DNA of 64,000 bases from Mycobacteroides salmoniphilum (lineage in GTDB: Bacteria > Actinomycetota > Actinomycetes > Mycobacteriales > Mycobacteriaceae), in assembly GCF_004924335.1 (NCBI RefSeq), contig NZ_CP024633.1, positions 4,402,001-4,466,000 of the forward strand, in the 5' to 3' direction. The notes beneath the pieces were generated by a model. The model made no database searches. It was not told where the DNA came from and was given only the letters and a program-made list of their open reading frames with translations. The translations under genes were made by a program, and so were the position numbers. Positions 1,596 through 61,670 of this stretch are shown here, piece by piece (position 1 is the first letter of the stretch; every line of letters begins with the position of its first letter).

Positions 1596-1632
1596 CTACG
1601 TAGGTAGATTGTGAGTGAACAACTACGTAGGT
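1596..1632. promoter_or_regulatory. Tandem CTACGTAGGT dyads upstream of methyltransferase gene
   Basis: CTACGTAGGT occurs exactly twice, at 1596-1605 and 1623-1632, 27 bp start to start and in the same orientation. The core CTACGTAG is a perfect palindrome. They lie 63-99 bp before the preferred GTG start (1695) of the methyltransferase, a normal place for a repressor or activator. An alternative upstream start (1611) would make the second copy coding, but that extra N-terminus does not look like the family. Confidence 0.5.
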
Positions 1633-1694
1633 GCACTCTGGCCATTAGGAGCGCCGGAGCTGGGCGAGCGGCTCCTTGGGTTAGGACAATTCCA

Positions 1695-2450
1695 GTGCGC
1701 GAGTACGCGGATCTGATCACCGAGGCCAGCACGGTTGACGTGAGCGGTTGGGACTTTTCCTGGTTCACAGGACGGGCCTCAGAAGCACGGCCGGGGTGGG
1801 GATACCAAAGGCTGATGGCCGAGCGTCTCGCCATGGCATCCGCATCTCTGGACATCCAGACGGGCGGCGGTGAGGTGCTGGCCGGCGCATCACGCTATCC
1901 GCCCACGGCAGTCGCCACAGAAGCCTGGCCGCCCAACGTTATTAAGGCGACACAGCTATTGCATCCGCGTGGGGTCGCCGTTGTCGCGGCAGCCGAGCAA
2001 CCGCCCTGGCCTTTCGCCGACAGCGCCTTCGACCTCATCACCAGCAGGCATCCCGCGACTGTCTGGTGGGATGAAATCGCCCGGGTACTGCGGCCTGGTG
2101 GCATCTACTTCGCCCAACACGTGGGCGCCGAGAGCATGTTCGAGCTGGCCATGCACTTCGTTGAGATTCGCCCGGAGCACCGCCGTGCACGGCGGGCCGA
2201 CATCGAGGCAGAGCGAGCCCGGGCCGCGGGTCTGCAGATCCTCAGTGTGCACAGCGCGCGCACACGCGTCGAGTTCTACGACATCGCAGCCGTTGTGGTG
2301 TTCCTGCGAAAAGTTGTATGGACAGTGCCGGGGTTTGACATCGTCACCCACGACGCTGCGCTACGCACCCTCGATGCTCAGATAAGACGGGACGGGGTGT
2401 TCGTCGCCCACTCCACCCGCACCCTCATCGAGGCCCGCCGAACAGGCTGA
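1695..2450 (+). CDS. Class I SAM-dependent methyltransferase
   Basis: The product of 251 residues is a cytosolic SAM-dependent methyltransferase. Motif I is LDIQTGGGEVLAGA, the acidic strand ends near TEAWPP, motif II/III is WPFADSAFDLITSRH, and the post-motif IARVLRPGGIYFAQHVG is typical. The GTG at 1695 (VREYADLI) is preferred: it has AGGA 8 nt upstream and gives a family-like N-terminus beginning just before the conserved FTGRASEARPGWGYQRL region; a GTG at 1611 is possible. The methyl acceptor cannot be told. It is convergent with the F420-type oxidoreductase gene, two bases apart. Confidence 0.8.
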   Translation: MREYADLITEASTVDVSGWDFSWFTGRASEARPGWGYQRLMAERLAMASASLDIQTGGGEVLAGASRYPPTAVATEAWPPNVIKATQLLHPRGVAVVAAAEQPPWPFADSAFDLITSRHPATVWWDEIARVLRPGGIYFAQHVGAESMFELAMHFVEIRPEHRRARRADIEAERARAAGLQILSVHSARTRVEFYDIAAVVVFLRKVVWTVPGFDIVTHDAALRTLDAQIRRDGVFVAHSTRTLIEARRTG

Positions 2451-9874: not shown

Positions 9875-9911
9875 AAACTCAGCGCGTGAGAGACGCTAGT
9901 TAGGAGATTCT

Positions 9912-12900
9912 GTGTTCGCCTGGTGGGGCCGAATGGTGTACCGATATCGGTTCATCGTCGTCGCCGCGTTCGTCACGATCTGCCTGGGTTCCGGGCTGTT
10001 CGGGATAACGCTCGGCGACCACGTGACGCAGAGCGGTTTCTTCGCCGACAACAGCGAGTCCGTGAAGGCCTCCGTGATGGCCGACGACGCGCTGGGACGT
10101 GACCGAACCACCCACGTCGTCGCCGTCATCGCGGCCCCGGAGGGCAAGACCGTCGATGATCCTGACTTCCAGAAGAAGGTCACCGACCACTTCAACCAGC
10201 TTCAGAAGGACAACCCCAACGAGGTCTACGGCTGGGCCGGCTGGTTACGCGCCCCCACCAGCACAGACCCCACCGTCAAACGGATGGTGACCGACGACCG
10301 TAAGCACACCTTCGTCTCTGTCAGCCTCAACGGCGACGATGACGACACCATCCTCAACAACTACAAGGCCCTGTCGAATCCGGACAAGGACGACGACCCC
10401 GCGAAGAACAAGTTCCTACTCAACGGTGTCGATATCCAGCTGGCCGGCCTGCAGCCGGTCGCCAGCGAGCTGACCGGAACCATCGGCAAGGACCAGCAGC
10501 GCATGGAGGTCCTGTCGCTGCCTGTCATGGCCGTCGTGTTGTTCTTCGTCTTCGGTGGTGTGATCGCCGCCGGCCTACCCCTGATGGTGGGTGGTCTGAC
10601 CATCGCCGGCGCACTCGGAATCATGCGTTTGATCACGCTGTTCGCGCCGGTGCACTTCTTCGCTCAGCCGGTGGTCACACTCATCGGCCTGGGCATCGCC
10701 ATCGACTACTCGCTATTCATCGTCAGCCGTTTCCGCGAGGAAATCGCCGAGGGTTACGACACCGAAACTGCGGTCCGGCGCACCGTCATCACCTCGGGGC
10801 GCACCGTCATGTTCTCGGCGACCCTGATCGCGGCCGCCTTGATGCCGATGCTCATCGTGCCGCAGCAGTTCCTGAGGTCGCTGACGTACGCCGGTATCGC
10901 CTCGGTGCTGCTCGCCGCGATTCTGGCGGTCACCGTGCTGCCCGCGTGTCTGGGTGTTCTCGGGCGGCATGTCGACGCCCTGAGCATCAAGCGGTTCAGC
11001 CGCACCAAGTCACGCGAGGAGCTGGAGAACGGCTTCTGGGGACGCACCGTCGTCTTCGTGATGCAGCGACCGTTGATGTTCGCCGTGCCGATCGTCATCG
11101 TGATGCTGCTGCTGATCATCCCGCTGGGCAATCTCAAACTCGGCGGATTCAGTGAAAAGTACCTGCCACCAACGAATTCCGTTCGCATGGCACAAGAGGA
11201 CTTCGACACACTCTTCCCCGGCTTCCGTACCGAGACCATCACCATCGTCACCAAGGGCGCGACCGACACGCAGCTCAATCAGATCCGGGCCGATGCGATG
11301 AAGGTTCCGGGGTTTGTCGAGCCCGGCGGGGACAAGACCCAGATGTGGCAGCGCCGTCAGTCGGTCAAGACCGATGGCGACGCCAGCGTCAAAGTCATCC
11401 AGAACGCCTTGATCAATCGCGACACCGCCGGGGCCAAGGTCAAAGAGCTGCGAGCGATGTCCGTCCCCAAGGGCGTCACGATGTATGTCGGCGGTACTCC
11501 CGCACTCGAGCAGGACTCGATCGACACCGTGTTCGACAAACTTCCGCTGGTGATCGTGATTCTGATCAGCGTCACCACCATCCTGATGTTCCTGGCGTTC
11601 GGCTCGCTGGTACTGCCCATCAAGGCGGCCGTCATGAGCGCCCTCGGCCTGGGCTCCACCATGGGCATCCTGACCTGGATATTCGTTGACGGCCACTTCT
11701 CCACATGGCTGAACTTCACCCCGACCCCGCTCACAGCGCCGGTCATCGTGCTGATCATCGTCGTCATCTACGGCCTGTCCAGCGACTACGAAGTGTTCTT
11801 GATGTCCCGCATGATCGAGGCGCGACATCAAGGGCTATCGACCACCGAGGCCGTACGCGTGGGTACCGCCAACACCGGGCGCATCATCACCGCAGCCGCG
11901 TTGATTCTGATCGTGGTGGCCGGCGGCTTCGCTTTCTCCGATCTGGTGATGATGAAATACCTGGCCTTCGGTCTCATCGCCGCACTGATCCTCGACGCCA
12001 CCGTGGTCCGCATGCTGCTCATCCCGGCGGTCATGAAGCTGCTCGGCGACGACTGCTGGTGGGCACCGGCCTGGATGAAGCGTGTCCAGGTCAAACTCGG
12101 CCTCGGTGAAGTCACCCTCCCCGACGAGCGCAAGCGCCCGACCGGCCGCGAACAGGCCATCGCGGCGGCGACCTCTCCGGTCGGGTCCAACGCACGCACC
12201 ACCAAGCTGGCGATCGCCTCCGAGCGCACCCGGTTGCCCTCGACACCCCCAGCGCGCCAACACGATCCGTCGGCGCCGGCCCGGCCCACGCCGACTCCTC
12301 CCGCTCCCCCGACCACACCGGTCAGCCTGGCGGGTAACACCGGAGGCGACGCGCCCGCGACGACGCGGATGTCGGTGCCCGGTAAGAACGTTGCTCCCAC
12401 CGATGCGCCCACCACGCGCGTACCCGGTGGAAACCCCGCCGGCCCGGATGCTCCAACCACCCGCAGCAGCGTCGCCGGCACGCACCGCCCGGACCGCCGC
12501 AATGCCGATAGAGAGATCGAGTCGTGGCTCGGCGAGCTGCGCGGTCCCAAGCAGCCCGGCTCCGGACCGGCCGCCGAGTCGGGGGATGCGACCACCGCGA
12601 TACCCATCTCCAAGCCTCCTCAGTCCACGCCACAACCGCCGCAGCCGAACCGTGCCAACAGCACTCCGGCTGAGGACGCGACGACGGCGATGCCGATCGC
12701 CACACCGGATGCCACGCGGCAGGGTCCACCCCGGGCTCCGCGTCCCCCGCAGCCCACTCCCCCCGCCGCTGATGCGACGGAGGCGTTACCGGCATCCGGA
12801 CAGAGTCGTGATCAGAAGCGCACGCCAGAGCAACAGCAGGAAGCGGACGAGGCCACTCGCCGTAGCCGTGGCGGAAGTGTCAGCGCCCAGGATCTGCTGC

Positions 12901-33144: not shown

Positions 33145-33891
33145 CTAGACGCGCGGGCCGGGCGCGGGACCCGTGCCCACCGGTCCGGCAGGAGCCGGCG
33201 CGGTGACGGCGGGGGCTGGGCCGGGCACTGGTCCGGGTCCCTGCGGGAAGGTGGCCGCCGGTGCCTGGTTCTGAATAGCGGACTGCACGGCCGGGTTCTG
33301 CACGAGGGCCTGGGCTGCCGGGTTCTGCGCCACCTGCTGGGCGGCCGGGTTCTGTGACAACGCGGTCAGCAGTGCCGGGTTCACACCCATCGCCGCGGGG
33401 TTCAATCCGCCACCGTTGACGACCTGTGCCAGATCCAGCGGCAGACCGCACTTGGTGCGCAGGTCATTCAGCGGTGCGGCGATGCCACCGAGTGAACCGG
33501 CCACATCGGGCCGCGACACCAGGTAACTCTGCGTCTTGGCGGCGATCTGGTCCTGCGGGGCCGCCTTGATCTCGGTGAAGGCCGCATCGACGTCCGGATG
33601 CTGCTCCAGGTAACCCGCCGCGTTCTGGACCACGTTGCCGACGGTCTTGGTCATCTTGCTGGCCTGGCATCCGTCCGGTGTGGGTGTGGCCGGAGTCACC
33701 GTTGCCGCAGCGGGTGCGGCGGCGTTTGGGGCGGGTGCCGGCGCGGCGGGAGCCGCTGGAGCCGGGGCGGGAGTCGGGGGGACTGGTTCGGCCGCGGCAA
33801 TCGGTGCCAAGGCGCTCATCGCGAGCCCGCCAGCGAGAACACCTGCGCTCAGCAAGCCGTAGGCCGTGCGCCGCGAGGTTGTGGCTGACAT
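33145..33891 (-). CDS. Hemophore-related secreted protein (Rv0203 type) with repeat tail
   Basis: The 248-residue protein has a signal peptide (TAYGLLSAGVLAGGLAMSAL, cleaved after about AAA-E), a Pro/Ala linker, and the mycobacterial heme-binding domain: DGCQASKMTKTVGNVVQNAA, YLEQHPDVDAAFTEI, and a second Cys in LNDLRTKCGLPLDL. In M. tuberculosis the Rv0203 protein passes heme to MmpL3/MmpL11. It is adjacent and divergent to mmpL11, the same arrangement as Rv0203/Rv0202c. Unlike the short M. tuberculosis protein it carries NPAxQxxxQ repeats and a Pro/Gly-rich end. ATG 33891 has AGGAGG upstream. Confidence 0.85.
   Translation of the reverse strand: MSATTSRRTAYGLLSAGVLAGGLAMSALAPIAAAEPVPPTPAPAPAAPAAPAPAPNAAAPAAATVTPATPTPDGCQASKMTKTVGNVVQNAAGYLEQHPDVDAAFTEIKAAPQDQIAAKTQSYLVSRPDVAGSLGGIAAPLNDLRTKCGLPLDLAQVVNGGGLNPAAMGVNPALLTALSQNPAAQQVAQNPAAQALVQNPAVQSAIQNQAPAATFPQGPGPVPGPAPAVTAPAPAGPVGTGPAPGPRV
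33264..33371 (-). repeat. 27-bp tandem repeat inside hemophore gene
   Basis: The core CCGGGTTCTG recurs at 33291, 33318 and 33345, with a one-mismatch copy (CCTGGTTCTG) at 33264, an exact 27-bp period. In protein it gives nine-residue units NPAAQQVAQ, NPAAQALVQ and NPAVQSAIQ with a degenerate unit at one end. Confidence 0.8.
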
Positions 33892-34244
33892 GACATTCCT
33901 CCTACTTGGTTGGGGGATTACAGCCAAGGTATCGAAATTCAGCGCCATTTCGAAACACGGACGCGCGTAGTCACCAGAAGGTTACCGAGTCTTTATCGTC
34001 GGCCAGATTCTGAATTTCACGATCCTATTTTTCGTCCACCACAACGTTGCCAGGGAGCCTGAAAGGCACGTCCAGCCACCACTGGTTTTTCGCCAAGGCA
34101 GGCTGTTAGTAAACGTGTCATCGCAGGTTGCCGGGATATATGTAGACAGGGGGCACGGTTGGTCGCGTTGCTGTAGCATCACGACCACGCCACAGGAGAC
34201 TGCGTGCGTCACACCGAACGACAGGACCCCTCGTGCAGTCAGTC
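33892..34244. promoter_or_regulatory. 353-bp divergent gap between hemophore and mmpL11
   Basis: The gap holds the promoters for both heme-related genes. It is relatively AT-rich between 33950 and 34040 (for example GATCCTATTTTTCG). I could not recognise an IdeR box of the TTAGGNTAGNCTAACCTAA type or any clear dyad, nor a convincing open frame. Confidence 0.4.
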
Positions 34245-36287
34245 ATGATGCGCACCAGCGACTACCTTCGCAGGTATCGATGGTTAACGGTCGCTGTCTG
34301 GCTGATTCTTATTGTCGCTGCGGTGGGTCTGGTCGCCTGCCGCGGCGAAAAACTCACCGGCGGTGGTTTCGAGGTCGCCGGATCGCAGTCACTGACGGTG
34401 CACGACGCGATGGAGACCGGATTCCGCGATCACGGAGCTTCTCCCCTGGCCCTGGTCGCCGCGCCGCGACCCGATGCGACCGTCGCCGATATGACGGCCG
34501 CCGTCGATTACCTCAAGCAGGTGGCGGCGCAGATCCCCCAGGTTTCGGTCGAGCCCATTCCCCCGCAGCTCACTCCGCAACCGGACCGCCCGTTCGTCGT
34601 CACCCTGCGCATCGGGTTCGACAACACCGGCGCGACCGATATCGCCAAGGACCTTCGCAAGAAGATAGGTGTGCACGGGGGTGAGCCCGGGCAGATCGCT
34701 GGCGGTCGCGTGTCCCTGTATGTCATAGGCCAAGGCGCGCTGGGTGCCGCGATGACCGAACAGATCGCCGGCGACATCAAACAGGCCGAGAAGTGGAACA
34801 TCCCGGTCATCCTCATTGTGCTGATCGCCGCGTTCGGCTCCCTCGCCGCGGCCTCCCTGCCCTTGCTCCTGGGCCTGTGCACGGTGGCGCTGAGCGTTGC
34901 GCTCGTGCTCGCGCTGTCCAACATCACCACTATTTCGGTGTTCGCCCTGCCGACGGTGACCATGATCGGCCTCGCCGTCGCGGTGGACTACTCCCTATTC
35001 ATCCTCATGCGCTACCGCGAGGAACTGAACTCCGGGAAGAACAGACAAGAGGCCATCGCCGGGGCCATGGCCACCTCGGGCCTCACCGTCACGTTCTCCG
35101 GCCTGACGGTGATCGCCGCCCTCGCCGGTATCTACCTGATCGGCACCCCCGCGCTGGCGTCGATGGCCTCCGGCGCCATCATCGTCGTCGCCATCGCCGT
35201 CCTCACCTCCACCACACTGATGCCCGCACTGCTCGCCATCTTCGGCAAGGCCGCGGCCAAGCAGTCCCGGCTTTTGCGCGTGTCACCGCTGCGTAAGCAT
35301 TCAATTCCATTCTGGCGCAAGTGGACCCAGGAGGTTATGCGCAGGCCATGGCTCTCCGCGCTGGGCGCCACGATATTCCTGCTCGCGCTCGCCGCGCCGA
35401 GCCTGCAGATGCAGGTCTCCAATAGCATGCTGCGCCAATTCGATTCGTCCCATGAGATCCGTCGGGGCATCGACGCTGCGGCCGTCGCCATGGGACCGGG
35501 TGCACTCGGACCGGTCCAAATACTGCTCACCTTCGACGGCGAAACCAATGGCACAGCCAACGCCGACAACCCCGCCCACGCACAAGCCCTCGAGACCGCC
35601 AGGGAAACGATTGCGCAGGCCCCCAACATCGCGCGGGTCTCGGATCCGGTCTTCTCCACGGGCGGGCATGACGCGCTGATCTCGGCCGTGCTGTCGGTGG
35701 ACCCCGAAGCGACTGCCGCACGCGAGACCGTGAGCTGGCTCCGCGTGAATGTGCCCGATGCGCTCAAGGATTCGGGGGCCGATATCAATGTCGGCGGGCC
35801 GACGGCCTTGCTGTTCGACTACGACAACAGAGTCGAACACTCCCTGTTGGGCGTATTCGCGTTCGTCTGTGTACTCGCATTCGTGATGCTGCTGGCCACG
35901 CTGCGCTCACCGGTGCTGGCGCTCAAGGGTGTGGTGATGACGGTGCTCTCGGTAGCCGCCGCCTACGGCAGTCTGGTGATCGTCTTCCAGTGGGGATGGC
36001 TGGAATTCCTGGGCTTCCATAAGGCCAATATCGACAGCAGCATCCCACCGTTGGCTCTCGCACTGACCTTCGGTCTCACCATGGATTACGAGATTTTCCT
36101 GCTGGCGCGTGCGCATCTGGTCCTGACCTTCCGCGACGAGAAAGCCCCCGGCCATTGGTCGGGGGCTTTCTCGTATTACGTCGGAGAATCTAGAAGCGCT
36201 GCCAGTCGTCGTAACCGTCGTAGTCCTTGTACGGACCACCGGGCGAGTTCTTCACGATCACCGGGTCACCGGGGTGCGACTGGTTGA
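34245..36287 (+). pseudogene. mmpL11: MmpL11 transporter, truncated after TM10
   Basis: The product matches MmpL11 (as I recall Rv0202c) along its length: GGGFEVAGSQSLTVHDAMET, LRIGFDNTGATDIAKDLRKK, YVIGQGAL, VAVDYSLFILMRYREEL, MLRQFDSSHEIRRG, GPGALGPVQI, AAYGSLVIVFQWGW and LTMDYEIFLLARA. Homology ends at about 36114, in the TM10 segment that carries the second Asp-Tyr proton-relay pair. TM11, TM12 and the long cytosolic tail (about 300 residues in M. tuberculosis) are absent. The frame then runs through the L,D-transpeptidase terminator and into its antisense to a stop at 36285-36287. RND transport needs both halves, so loss of function is likely. ATG 34245 (MMRTSDYLRR) matches the family start. 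Confidence 0.82.
36136..36174. terminator. Intrinsic terminator of the L,D-transpeptidase gene
   Basis: ACGAGAAAGCCCCCG (36136-36150) and CGGGGGCTTTCTCGT (36160-36174) form a perfect 15-bp stem that can extend by three pairs to a 3-base loop. It lies 16 bp beyond the L,D-transpeptidase stop. The AAAG/CTTT part gives a short U-rich end on the minus strand. It now also lies inside the read-through frame of truncated mmpL11. Confidence 0.85.
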
Positions 36288-37200
36288 AGTACCAGGTGGC
36301 GTTGTCGGTGCTCAGGTTGATGCAGCCGTGGCTGGTGTCCTGCTTACCTTGCGCACCCACCGACCACGGCGCCGCGTGGACAAAGATGCCGGAGTTGGAG
36401 ATGCGGGTAGCCCAGAACACGTCGAGCTTGTAGCCCTCCGCTGAATTGACCGGCACCCCGTAGGTGGACGAGTCCATCACCATCTTCTGGAACTTCTCGC
36501 TGACGTAGTACGTGCCGTTCTTGGTCTCATGCTTCTTGTCGTGCTTACCCATCGACATGGGCATGGTGCGTTCCACGACCCCGTTCCGGGTCACCGTCAT
36601 CGTGTACGTCGCATCGTCGACCGTCGACACGAAGGCGTCACCGACCTTGAAGCTCCACTTGGTGCCACCCGCATTCACGTTCACATCAGTGTTCGCGGGC
36701 CAGAACTGCGTGGGCTTCCAGCGCAGCTGCTGATCGGTGTACCAGTAGAAATATCCCGGCACAGACTTCGACGTGGTGATCTTGACGGCGGCCTCGGCGG
36801 CCTTCTTGTCCGTGACCGGCGCGGCGAAGACGATCGTTACCGGCTGGGCCACGCCGACAACGTCACCGTTGTTGGGCGAGTTCTTCAGCAACCCCACCGG
36901 CAGCGGCGGCACATCGCCCGTCGGAGGCGCACCCGGAGGCGGTGTGGTCGGCGCCGGAGGCGGCGGAACCTCACCAGGAGGCGGTGCATCGGGCGCAGGC
37001 GGCGGTGGCGGCAGTTCCCACGGCAGCGGCGGGGGTGGCGGAAGCTCACCGGGAGGCGGCGGGGGCGCCGGTTCTTGGATGCCCGGATCGCCGGGATCAC
37101 CCGGTTCTGCGAGGGCAGGAACCACCCCGGCACCCAGCAGTCCCGCGACACAGACACCGCTGACAAGGGCGCGCCGGAACCAACGAGTTAAGACAAGCAT
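36190..37200 (-). CDS. L,D-transpeptidase (LdtMt4/Rv0192-like) with Pro-rich linker
   Basis: The enzyme forms 3-3 cross-links in peptidoglycan. The 336-residue product has a signal peptide (ALVSGVCVAGLLGAGVVPAL), a linker of about 65 residues that is very rich in Pro, an Ig-like domain (VVGVAQPVTIVFAAPVTDKK) and a YkuD catalytic domain with the motif IFVHAAPWSV...DTSHGCINL, containing the catalytic His and Cys. ATG 37200 with GGAG upstream is chosen; GTG 37218 is possible. Position between ricR and hemophore/mmpL11 fits Rv0192 order. In mycobacteria these enzymes are carbapenem targets. Confidence 0.93.
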   Translation of the reverse strand: MLVLTRWFRRALVSGVCVAGLLGAGVVPALAEPGDPGDPGIQEPAPPPPPGELPPPPPLPWELPPPPPAPDAPPPGEVPPPPAPTTPPPGAPPTGDVPPLPVGLLKNSPNNGDVVGVAQPVTIVFAAPVTDKKAAEAAVKITTSKSVPGYFYWYTDQQLRWKPTQFWPANTDVNVNAGGTKWSFKVGDAFVSTVDDATYTMTVTRNGVVERTMPMSMGKHDKKHETKNGTYYVSEKFQKMVMDSSTYGVPVNSAEGYKLDVFWATRISNSGIFVHAAPWSVGAQGKQDTSHGCINLSTDNATWYFNQSHPGDPVIVKNSPGGPYKDYDGYDDWQRF

Positions 37201-37334
37201 GCTCACTCCTGTAGACACGACACATCCAGTGTGTCATAGGGTTCGTCGCCACCAGGCAACACGATGTATCACCTGCCCAAGAAAACGACTCTTGACCAGG
37301 TCTTATCGCCGTTGATTAGAAAAGGTCACATTCA

Positions 37335-50430: not shown

Positions 50431-50434
50431 GGAT

Positions 50435-50881
50435 TTACGACGGCCACCTGCTGGTGGTCGTCGGGGTGAATATCCGCGTGGGACTGACGCGCGGGAACGT
50501 GGGCGCAGGAAATCGCCGCGGTGCGGGCGGGCGCGGCGGCATGTACGTGAAAATGTCGATGAAGTACATGATTCCGCCGATAAGAGCGGACAGACCGCAC
50601 ACCAGCAAGATCAAATCCCACGGGTCGAAGGTGGCCGTGCCCGGATCCGCGGCCATGTATCTGTACACCACCCGGACAAACATGATGATCAGCGAGGTTC
50701 CCCCGATCACGCCCAGAATCGCGAAACACGTGTGGAAGAAGGCCATGTGTTGGGAGCCGCCCGCGTAGCCGACGGCATTGCCCCAGCGACTGGCCATCAA
50801 CCCGCCCAGCCCGAGTATGGCCGGGACACTCACCCCGACGACGATCTTCCCGAGCACATCGCGATAGTCGACGAGCGCCAT
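50435..50881 (-). CDS. Conserved small membrane protein (Rv0188 position)
   Basis: The 148-residue protein has three to four spans (KIVVGVSVPAILGLGGLMAS, MAFFHTCFAILGVIGGTSLI, LILLVCGLSALIGGIMYFID) and a Pro-rich cytosolic tail. ATG 50881 has AAGGAG before it. By position next to an O-methyltransferase and near ilvD it corresponds to M. tuberculosis Rv0188. The function is unknown. Confidence 0.75.
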   Translation of the reverse strand: MALVDYRDVLGKIVVGVSVPAILGLGGLMASRWGNAVGYAGGSQHMAFFHTCFAILGVIGGTSLIIMFVRVVYRYMAADPGTATFDPWDLILLVCGLSALIGGIMYFIDIFTYMPPRPPAPRRFPAPTFPRVSPTRIFTPTTTSRWPS

Positions 50882-50982
50882 TACCGACTCCTTCGGCCGC
50901 GACGACAGCGGGTTAGGTGTTAATACCACGAGGGCTCGCATCCGCGACTCAAAATCCAGGAAACGGGCGTACCCTCACGGAA

Positions 50983-51627
50983 GTGACTCTCTCCCAATCA
51001 GTGTGGACCGACACCGACGACTACCTGGAGCGCACCGTCGCCACCGACGCTGCCGAGCTGGACCACATCCGCCAGGCGCAGCAGGAAGGCGGCCTGCCCG
51101 ATATCGCGGTATCGGCCGCTCAGGGCAAGTTCCTGTACTTGTTGGCCACGATTGCCAAGGCCAGCCGGGTGCTGGAGATCGGCACGCTCGGCGGGTACAG
51201 CACCGCATGGCTCGCCAAGGCGGTCGGCCCTGACGGCGCGGTGGTGACGCTGGAGTTCGAGCCCAAACATGCTTCCGTCGCACAGGCCAGTCTGGAGCGC
51301 GCCGGACTCGCCGAACGTGTGGAGGTCCTGGTGGGCCCGGCTCTCGACTCGCTGCCCTCGGTCGAGGGACCGTTCGATCTGGTGTTCATCGATGCCGACA
51401 AATCCAACAACCCGGGCTATCTCGATTGGGCGTTGCGGCTCACACGGCCCGGGGCAGTAATCGTGGTGGACAACGTGATTCGCTGGATCTCGGAAGAGGG
51501 TCCGAACGCCGAAGGGACTCGCCAGGCGCTGGAGCGGCTGGGTTCTGATCCACGTCTGGATGCCACTGCGCTGCAGACAGTGGGCGTCAAAGGCTGGGAC
51601 GGGCTGGCGATCGCCGTCGTGCGCTAG
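50983..51627 (+). CDS. SAM-dependent O-methyltransferase (Rv0187 type)
   Basis: The 214-residue enzyme is of the caffeoyl-CoA/catechol O-methyltransferase group. Motif I is ASRVLEIGTLGGYSTAWLA, the acidic strand VVTLEFEPKHA, and the metal-binding residues are in LVFIDADKSNNPGYLDWAL and VIVVDNVIRW. GTG 50983 (VTLSQSVWTD) follows CACGGAA and gives the family N-terminus. It corresponds to Rv0187. The acceptor is not known. Its stop shares CTAG with the convergent metallohydrolase gene. Confidence 0.92.
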   Translation: MTLSQSVWTDTDDYLERTVATDAAELDHIRQAQQEGGLPDIAVSAAQGKFLYLLATIAKASRVLEIGTLGGYSTAWLAKAVGPDGAVVTLEFEPKHASVAQASLERAGLAERVEVLVGPALDSLPSVEGPFDLVFIDADKSNNPGYLDWALRLTRPGAVIVVDNVIRWISEEGPNAEGTRQALERLGSDPRLDATALQTVGVKGWDGLAIAVVR

Positions 51628-59980: not shown

Positions 59981-60113
59981 CGGGGCTCCTCGGTGCATGA
60001 CGGCGGCATCTCCACCGTTCATCTGTATCGACAACCCGGCGCCCGAAAACTCATCGGCCCACCGCATCGATGAATCCCACACCCGAGACCGTTCCGGACG
60101 GCAGGATTGGGGT

Positions 60114-61670
60114 ATGCAATTCACCCAGTGGCTGCACCGTGCCCTGCAGCAGGACCCGAACCGCCCCATCACGATCTACCAGGGCCGGGAACGCACCGTG
60201 GAGCAGTTCGCCGACCGTGTCGCCCGGCTGGCCGGGGCACTTCGAGCCCTCGGCGTCCGGCCGGGCGACCGGGTGGGCATGCTCTCGCTGAACTCCGACC
60301 GCTACGTCGAATACCTCACCGCGGCGCCGTGGTTGGGTGCTGCGCTGAACGCCGTCAACATCCGCTGGAGCCTTGCCGAGATCGGCTACTCCCTGCGTGA
60401 ATCCGGCACCCGTGTGCTGTTCGTGGACGACGCATTCAAGGCCGCCGCCGCACCGCTGCGTGCTGCCTGTGCATGCCTGGACACCGTCATCTACTGCGGC
60501 GACGGTCCCACACCCGAGGACATGATCGGGTACGAGGACCTCCTCGCCGCGCACGAGCCCGTCGCGGACACCCGCACCGGTGGCGCCAGCCTGCTAGGCG
60601 TCTTCTACACGGGAGGAACCACCGGAAATCCCAAGGGCGTCATGCTGTCTCATGACAATGTGCTGACCTCGGCGATGGGGTCGCTATCCACCGGAAACTT
60701 CCTCACCCGTGACGGCCGACTGCTGCACTCGGCGCCGATGTTCCACATGGCCGACTTCAGTGCCGTCCTCGCGGGGAACCTCTCGGGTTCCACGCACGTA
60801 ATCGTCCCGTCGTTCACTCCACAGGGGGTGCTGGACGCCATCGTTGAGCACGATGTCCAGGACATGCTGTTGGTGCCCACCATGATCCAGATGCTGGTCG
60901 ATCATCCAGCGGCCGCACAGCTCGACCTCAGTGGTATCCGCGGAATCGTCTACGGCGCCTCGGTCATCTCCGAGGCAGTGCTGCAACGCGCCAAACACGT
61001 GTTCCCCAACGCGCGATTCACCCAGGCCTACGGCATGACCGAGGTGTCCCCCGTCGCGACGCTGCTGCTTCCCGACGATCATGACGACCCCGCGCTGCTG
61101 CGCTCGGCGGGACGCGCGGCCCCCCATTGCGAGGTGATGATCGTCGACTCCAGCGGAGACACCGACACCGAAGTCCCACGCGGCGAAATCGGCGAAGTGG
61201 TCGTCAAGGGCGACAACGTCATGCTCGGCTACTGGGAGCTACCCGAGGAGTCTGCGGCCGCCGCCCGGGACGGATGGATGCACACCGGCGACGCCGGGCG
61301 GATGGATGAACGCGGGTACGTCTACATCGTCGATCGCATCAAGGACATGGTGGTGACCGGCGGCGAGAACGTCTACTCGGCCGAGGTAGAGAACGCGCTG
61401 GCCAAGCATCCGGCGGTAGCGGCGTGCGCGGTGATCGGCATCCCCGACGAACGGTGGGGTGAACGCGTGCATGCCGTCGTCGTCACACAGACGCAATCCG
61501 AGTGCTGCGGCGAGGATCTCCAGGAGCACTGCCGCGAACACATCGCCAACTACAAGGTGCCGCGCAGCTTCGAGTTCGTGGACGAGCTCCCGTTGTCCGG
61601 TGCGGGCAAGATCCTCAAGCGCGTGCTCCGCCAGAAGTACTGGGATACCCGCGATGCAGGCGTCTCCTAA
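60114..61670 (+). CDS. Fatty-acyl-CoA / AMP-dependent ligase (FadD)
   Basis: The 518-residue adenylating enzyme activates a carboxylic acid as AMP-ester and CoA thioester. Core motifs are LLGVFYTGGTTGNPKGVMLS (A3), AYGMTEVSPV (A5), GYWELPEESAAAARDGWMHT-GD (A7), YIVDRIKDMVVTGGENVYSA (A8) and the catalytic Lys region LSGAGKILKR (A10). ATG 60114 (MQFTQWLHRALQ) has GGATTGGGG before it. The frame is open far upstream, but this is antisense to the VOC gene. Chain-length preference is unknown. Confidence 0.93.
   Translation: MQFTQWLHRALQQDPNRPITIYQGRERTVEQFADRVARLAGALRALGVRPGDRVGMLSLNSDRYVEYLTAAPWLGAALNAVNIRWSLAEIGYSLRESGTRVLFVDDAFKAAAAPLRAACACLDTVIYCGDGPTPEDMIGYEDLLAAHEPVADTRTGGASLLGVFYTGGTTGNPKGVMLSHDNVLTSAMGSLSTGNFLTRDGRLLHSAPMFHMADFSAVLAGNLSGSTHVIVPSFTPQGVLDAIVEHDVQDMLLVPTMIQMLVDHPAAAQLDLSGIRGIVYGASVISEAVLQRAKHVFPNARFTQAYGMTEVSPVATLLLPDDHDDPALLRSAGRAAPHCEVMIVDSSGDTDTEVPRGEIGEVVVKGDNVMLGYWELPEESAAAARDGWMHTGDAGRMDERGYVYIVDRIKDMVVTGGENVYSAEVENALAKHPAVAACAVIGIPDERWGERVHAVVVTQTQSECCGEDLQEHCREHIANYKVPRSFEFVDELPLSGAGKILKRVLRQKYWDTRDAGVS

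What the first reader, a model, noticed from the sequence alone, without database searches (positions are those of the whole stretch)
36100..36290. mmpL11 lost TM11, TM12 and its tail; the break abuts the L,D-transpeptidase terminator
MmpL11 homology stops at MDYEIFLLARA (to about 36114); 22 bases later the perfect terminator of ldt begins. A deletion joining the inside of mmpL11 to the far side of ldt is the simplest explanation. It would remove the second half of the transport unit and any genes between, in a species whose hemophore is intact. MmpL11 loss alters biofilm lipids and heme use in other mycobacteria.
Basis: partly seen in the sequence, partly recalled or inferred. Interest (0 to 1): 0.7.

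Follow-up and report, generated by a model that had tools for sequence, protein, structure and literature searches.

The report
Deletion removing mmpL11 end, eis2, zmp1
A clean 7-kilobase deletion in this fish-associated mycobacterium cuts off the end of a lipid-transporter gene and removes its neighbours for an antibiotic-modifying enzyme and a protease, which matters because the genome appears to be the reference strain of its species.

Summary
MmpL11 homology stops at codon 626/627 (36111-36113). The 10 nearest genomes found keep open frames of 947-971 codons and hold a block of 7.0-7.2 kb (6.1 kb in one) exactly at this join. The window's genome lacks it apart from its edges. One deletion therefore joins mmpL11 to the last codons of zmp1, with 2-7 bp of possible microhomology and no inserted element. 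ldt and its hairpin are intact, so the far end is zmp1, not "the far side of ldt".

The block also holds an HTH gene, a CD225 gene, eis2 (PDB 6rft/9mva), a CoA-binding gene, two unassigned frames and zmp1 (PDB 3zuk). Only 37% paralogues of Eis2 and Zmp1 remain. The fused frame misses zmp1's stop and runs through the hairpin, so transcripts ending there would lack a stop codon (inferred).

An ordinary deletion with a consequential gene set; laboratory, strain or subgroup origin is unresolved.

The parts
34233..36111 (+). Retained 5' two thirds of mmpL11 (626 native codons; the start may be the ATG at 34245 used in some named relatives)
36105..36111 (+). Deletion junction: seven bases that can be read as mmpL11 or as zmp1 (true shared length 2-7)
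   Evidence: relatives differ here only at synonymous sites
36112..36126 (+). Last codons of zmp1 and its stop (36124-36126), out of frame with mmpL11
34233..36287 (+). Fused open frame: 626 MmpL11 residues, junction codon, 57 foreign residues; stop at 36285-36287, beyond the hairpin
36136..36174 (.). Hairpin between the convergent genes (zmp1 and ldt in relatives; mmpL11 remnant and ldt here)
   Evidence: no T tail
36190..37218 (-). ldt, L,D-transpeptidase, intact, outside the deletion
33145..33948 (-). Hemophore-related protein upstream of mmpL11, intact

Best explanation
One deletion of about 7.0 kb removed the 3' third of mmpL11, an HTH gene, a CD225-domain gene, eis2, a CoA-binding gene, two unassigned minus-strand frames and all but the last codons of zmp1. 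Shown: presence of the block in relatives, its absence here, both breakpoints. The join probably formed by end-joining or slippage at a short shared GC-rich motif (inferred). The remnant should not make a working MmpL11: it lacks two membrane helices and the C-terminal tail. Its frame runs past zmp1's stop into the hairpin, so messages ending there would have no stop codon and the fragment should be tagged and degraded (inferred). The strain is expected to lack MmpL11, Eis2 and Zmp1 activity at once (inferred from family knowledge).
For: 10 of 10 nearest relatives have open mmpL11 frames of 947-971 codons against 713 stop-to-stop here and the block at this place. Sequence is collinear up to the join on the left and from the join on the right. 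A 7,201-base query finds only the edges, a 70% piece of an M13 paralogue and two short hairpin-region hits in the own genome. Eis2 and Zmp1 have only 37% relatives left. zmp1's stop is out of frame; strong hairpin before the fused stop. Published type-strain genome: one contig, PacBio 100x.
Against: No reads were examined, so an assembly error is not formally excluded. The hairpin has no T tail and is not listed by the consensus scan, so transcript ends there are assumed. A survey calls M. salmoniphilum DSM 43276 highly resistant to most of 15 antibiotics, in a panel with kanamycin, amikacin and capreomycin (PMC13246000); the values per drug were not seen, and this does not obviously fit loss of Eis2.
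Confidence: 0.88

Rival explanations
1. Same deletion, but it arose during laboratory keeping or is specific to the colony sequenced, and is not a trait of the strain in nature.
For: The genome paper reports that DSM 43276 gave rough and smooth colonies and that the rough type was sequenced. The other isolates with DNA here, D16R12 and D16Q13 (paper's groups I and III), hold the block, and named M. salmoniphilum MmpL11 proteins are full length.
Against: No DNA of another copy of the type strain was available, so nothing here shows an undeleted type strain.
Confidence: 0.35
2. Same deletion, but shared by the type strain's lineage (group II), hence older and natural.
For: The closest full-length MmpL11 proteins found are only 96-97% identical to the window's, so no full-length copy of a near-identical strain was seen.
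Against: The protein database is clustered: the control search with the hemophore listed no M. salmoniphilum entry at all among 12, so the missing copy means little.
Confidence: 0.35
3. Assembly or sequencing artefact.
For: Reads not seen. Published length of DSM 43276 is 72 bases less than this record.
Against: Sharp join inside two genes, no repeat long enough to collapse, no inserted sequence; published assembly from PacBio reads averaging 10 kb at 100x.
Confidence: 0.05
4. The shortened MmpL11 is still a working transporter of altered function.
For: The frame is open; MMPL domain matched; the retained part fits ten helices.
Against: Second membrane bundle incomplete, tail missing, 57 foreign residues, and no stop before the hairpin.
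Confidence: 0.04

Closest known systems
M. abscessus eis2 locus (MAB_4529 as mmpL11, MAB_4532c as eis2; PMC6839843, passages)
   Same: mmpL11 and eis2 as near neighbours; the block in the relatives here has mmpL11 and an Eis2 orthologue in one locus.
   Different: In the window eis2 is gone and mmpL11 is cut.
Laboratory eis2 deletion mutants of M. abscessus (PMC6143652, PMC12578646, PMC6839843; passages)
   Same: Absence of Eis2 with only an Eis1-like relative left (37%).
   Different: Engineered or selected single-gene loss there; here one deletion took eis2, zmp1, mmpL11's end and further genes.
Other interrupted mmpL11 genes in the genus (G009, G317)
   Same: mmpL11 frame interrupted in genomes of one or two contigs.
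   Different: There both pieces lie next to each other in different frames (frameshift or sequencing error); the homology up to residue 765/766 is present.

Membership tests
MmpL11 (MMPL/RND transporter) | Best match among same-genus MmpL proteins is MmpL11, at the hemophore locus | tested here: met
   57-61% identity over residues 2-627 to one protein per genome in the listed same-genus rows, next own paralogue 31%; hemophore-related gene upstream; a source names one such hit MmpL11 (P0040)
MmpL11 (MMPL/RND transporter) | Complete second membrane bundle and C-terminal tail | tested here: not met
   Ends at residue 626 of about 927-934
MmpL11 (MMPL/RND transporter) | Transport of lipids or heme | not testable with these tools
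   No experiment
Simple deletion polymorphism | Both flanks collinear with relatives, block missing at one join, no insertion element at the join | tested here: met
Simple deletion polymorphism | Block absent from the rest of the genome | tested here: met
Simple deletion polymorphism | Present in some strains of the species and absent in others | tested here: inconclusive
   Full-length proteins under the name M. salmoniphilum exist, but the type strain's own subgroup could not be examined
Eis2 of the M. abscessus-chelonae complex (lost gene, read in relatives) | Orthologue of M. abscessus Eis2 rather than Eis1 | tested here: met
   6rft/9mva at 796-798 bits, next chain 164.5 bits (query from L080)
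Zmp1 (lost gene, read in relatives) | M13 peptidase closest to M. tuberculosis Zmp1 | tested here: met
   3zuk 1089 bits over the whole query, next non-mycobacterial-type chain 521 bits (query from L080)

The most novel reading that the evidence does not exclude
The lineage of the species' type strain is a natural loss of MmpL11, Eis2 and Zmp1 by one deletion that also leaves a stop-less mmpL11 message. With a separate loss inside eis2 in one other relative, eis2 would be a recurrently lost resistance and intracellular-survival gene in this complex, giving wild strains sensitive to capreomycin and amikacin and unresponsive to florfenicol amine.
Probability: 0.25. Interest if true: 0.6.

Novelty: new member of a known kind. 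Interest (0 to 1): 0.42.

Why it matters
If this is the type strain, its genome is the reference of the species. PMC8379129 mapped salmon isolates' reads to DSM 43276 and built consensus sequences from that (passage), so genes missing from the reference could not appear in them. The strain would also be a poor stand-in for the species in drug-susceptibility, macrophage and biofilm work, and a ready test of Eis2-dependent drug action without genetic engineering.

Tried and rejected
Missing part elsewhere in the genome: not found. The protein search of the own genome gave 31 matches, the gene itself and MmpL-type paralogues, the next best at 31% identity. The DNA search with a relative's block gave five matches: the two edges, a 70% piece of an M13 paralogue, the hairpin in reverse and one short 80% hit.

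Truncation shared by the whole complex: rejected, 10 of 10 relatives have long frames and the block. Not resolved for group II.

Insertion element or prophage at the join: none seen; the flanks meet directly. RNA family near the site: 0 matches in 12,001 bases.

Placing the named full-length MmpL11 proteins in group I, II or III by identity: inconclusive. The control search with the hemophore was uninformative.

Is it in print? salmoniphilum with eis2: 1 paper (passages read, nothing on this). With mmpL11: 1 paper, PMC7563442 (listing only, not opened). With zmp1: 0. The genome paper's main text has no occurrence of mmpL11, zmp1 or deletion; supplements were not available. So "not described" holds only for these searches.

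Amikacin values for the strain: papers listed; those opened gave no value for this strain in the main text passages seen.

Full report
WHAT IS THERE. The window lies at 4402001-4466000 of a single-contig genome of 4,776,697 bases. The frame 34233-36287 matches MmpL11 from residue 1 or 2 to 626/627 and then stops matching. Of 396 same-genus genomes searched, 382 have a match at E 1e-150 or better and 14 do not; the table of places was cut short, so frame lengths were seen only for the listed rows. The 10 genomes closest to the window's (93-97% identity over the retained part) have open frames of 947-971 codons, against 713 stop-to-stop here. MmpL11 proteins under the name M. salmoniphilum are 927-934 aa among the 120 best listed.

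THE MISSING BLOCK. The stretch right of the break, ldt and the gene after it, is found in all 10 relatives, split over two contigs in two of them. A 7,005-base block taken from G214 matches all 10, over spans of 7,003-7,183 bases in nine and 6,123 in G322; in seven besides G214 itself it matches end to end as one piece, while G267 and G322 show two pieces. In the window's genome a 7,201-base query with both edges finds only the two edges, a 70% piece at 3807804 inside an M13 paralogue, the hairpin in reverse and one short 80% hit. The net missing length is 7,015-7,080 bases against the four relatives compared. The rest of the 64 kb is broadly collinear with G116, and this is the largest gap.

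THE JOIN. Alignment of both flanks and the codon register place the join at 36105-36111. Left of it is mmpL11; right of it are the last codons and the stop of zmp1. The seven bases can be read as either gene. Relatives differ from them only at synonymous sites, so the truly shared length lay between 2 and 7 (my reading). No extra bases are present. The far end is therefore in zmp1, and ldt with the hairpin is untouched.

WHAT WAS LOST. Read in relatives (frames, families, structures): about the last 308 codons of mmpL11; an HTH protein; a CD225-domain membrane protein; an Eis-type acetyltransferase whose best structures are Eis2 (9mva, 6rft; 798 and 796 bits, next chain 164.5); a CoA-binding protein; two minus-strand frames without a Pfam or NCBIfam match (by position perhaps Mce-associated proteins; that label is recalled, not tested); and zmp1 (3zuk, 1089 bits). 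The own genome keeps one Eis-type protein at 37% and one M13 peptidase at 37%; each of the four relatives searched has a like copy (36-39%) besides the true orthologue, so these are old paralogues and not displaced copies.

HOW THE REMNANT SHOULD BEHAVE. The missing two helices and the tail lie in the lost part. The fused frame does not use zmp1's stop, which is in another frame, and runs to 36285-36287. The hairpin at 36136-36174 stands before that stop. If it ends transcripts, as one expects between convergent genes, the message has no stop codon; the published type-strain genome has one tmRNA, so tagging and degradation is the likely fate. This is inference: the hairpin lacks a T tail and a consensus scan does not list it.

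IDENTITY OF THE GENOME. The genome paper (PMC6418233; sections on genomes, ANI, virulence genes and methods read; abstract and outline) gives 4,776,625 bp for type strain DSM 43276, one contig, PacBio 100x. The held genome is 72 bases longer. Its MmpL11 lies nearest to M. salmoniphilum sequences and to isolates D16R12 and D16Q13, which that paper puts in groups I and III. I take it to be the type strain or a near-identical record; no call names it. The paper says DSM 43276 formed rough and smooth colonies and the rough type was sequenced.

WHAT IT LIKELY MEANS. In M. abscessus, removing eis2 lowers the capreomycin MIC from >256 to 4 and amikacin from 4 to 0.25 mg/L (PMC6143652, passages) and weakens survival in macrophages, with eis1 not redundant (PMC6839843, abstract and passages). 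Eis2 activates florfenicol amine, and species without an Eis2 homologue showed no activity of it (PMC12578646, passages). PMC6839843 cites MmpL11 for heme acquisition and lipid transport in M. tuberculosis; for Zmp1 I read no paper, and its role is recalled only. Against a simple reading, a survey of 44 species reports M. salmoniphilum, from DSM 43276, as highly resistant to most of 15 antibiotics, with kanamycin, amikacin and capreomycin in the panel (PMC13246000, one section and passages). The values per drug are in files I could not read, so the Eis2 prediction is untested and may be wrong.

ORIGIN. Three readings stay open: laboratory or colony-specific loss, a trait of the type strain in nature, or a trait of group II. 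The closest full-length MmpL11 proteins are 96-97% identical, which leaves room for group II sharing the loss, but the database is clustered and the control search was uninformative.

CONTEXT. Interrupted mmpL11 is uncommon in the genus. Looking again at nine genomes chosen for missing or short matches: G009 and G317 have adjacent pieces in different frames; the other seven are drafts of 260-1,020 contigs with partial matches, paralogues only, or, in G169, no match at 1e-60. So eis2 appears lost at least twice among the genomes seen here.

VERDICT. A real, ordinary kind of mutation with an unusually consequential set of genes in what looks like a reference genome.

Noticed in passing
L074 (contig JACHLF010000002.1, M. 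chelonae S00154), about 9878-10230: A separate deletion of 879 bases inside eis2 leaves residues 1-66 and 356-411 only, in different frames.
   Followed up: partly
window 1611-2450 (+): A 279-aa frame, methyltransferase-like by eye, in an 852-base stretch with no counterpart in relative G116.
   Followed up: no
window 50431-51014: 584 bases that do not align to G116 (81 bases there), with a 168-aa membrane-protein-like frame at 50435-50941 (-).
   Followed up: no
window 60056-60067 and 61656-61670: G116 has about 2.06 kb and 0.76 kb more at these two points; the first holds a LemA-like frame and another membrane frame (labels by eye).
   Followed up: no
L035 (G009) and L094/L099 (G317): mmpL11 split into two adjacent frames, a frameshift or sequencing error.
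   Followed up: partly
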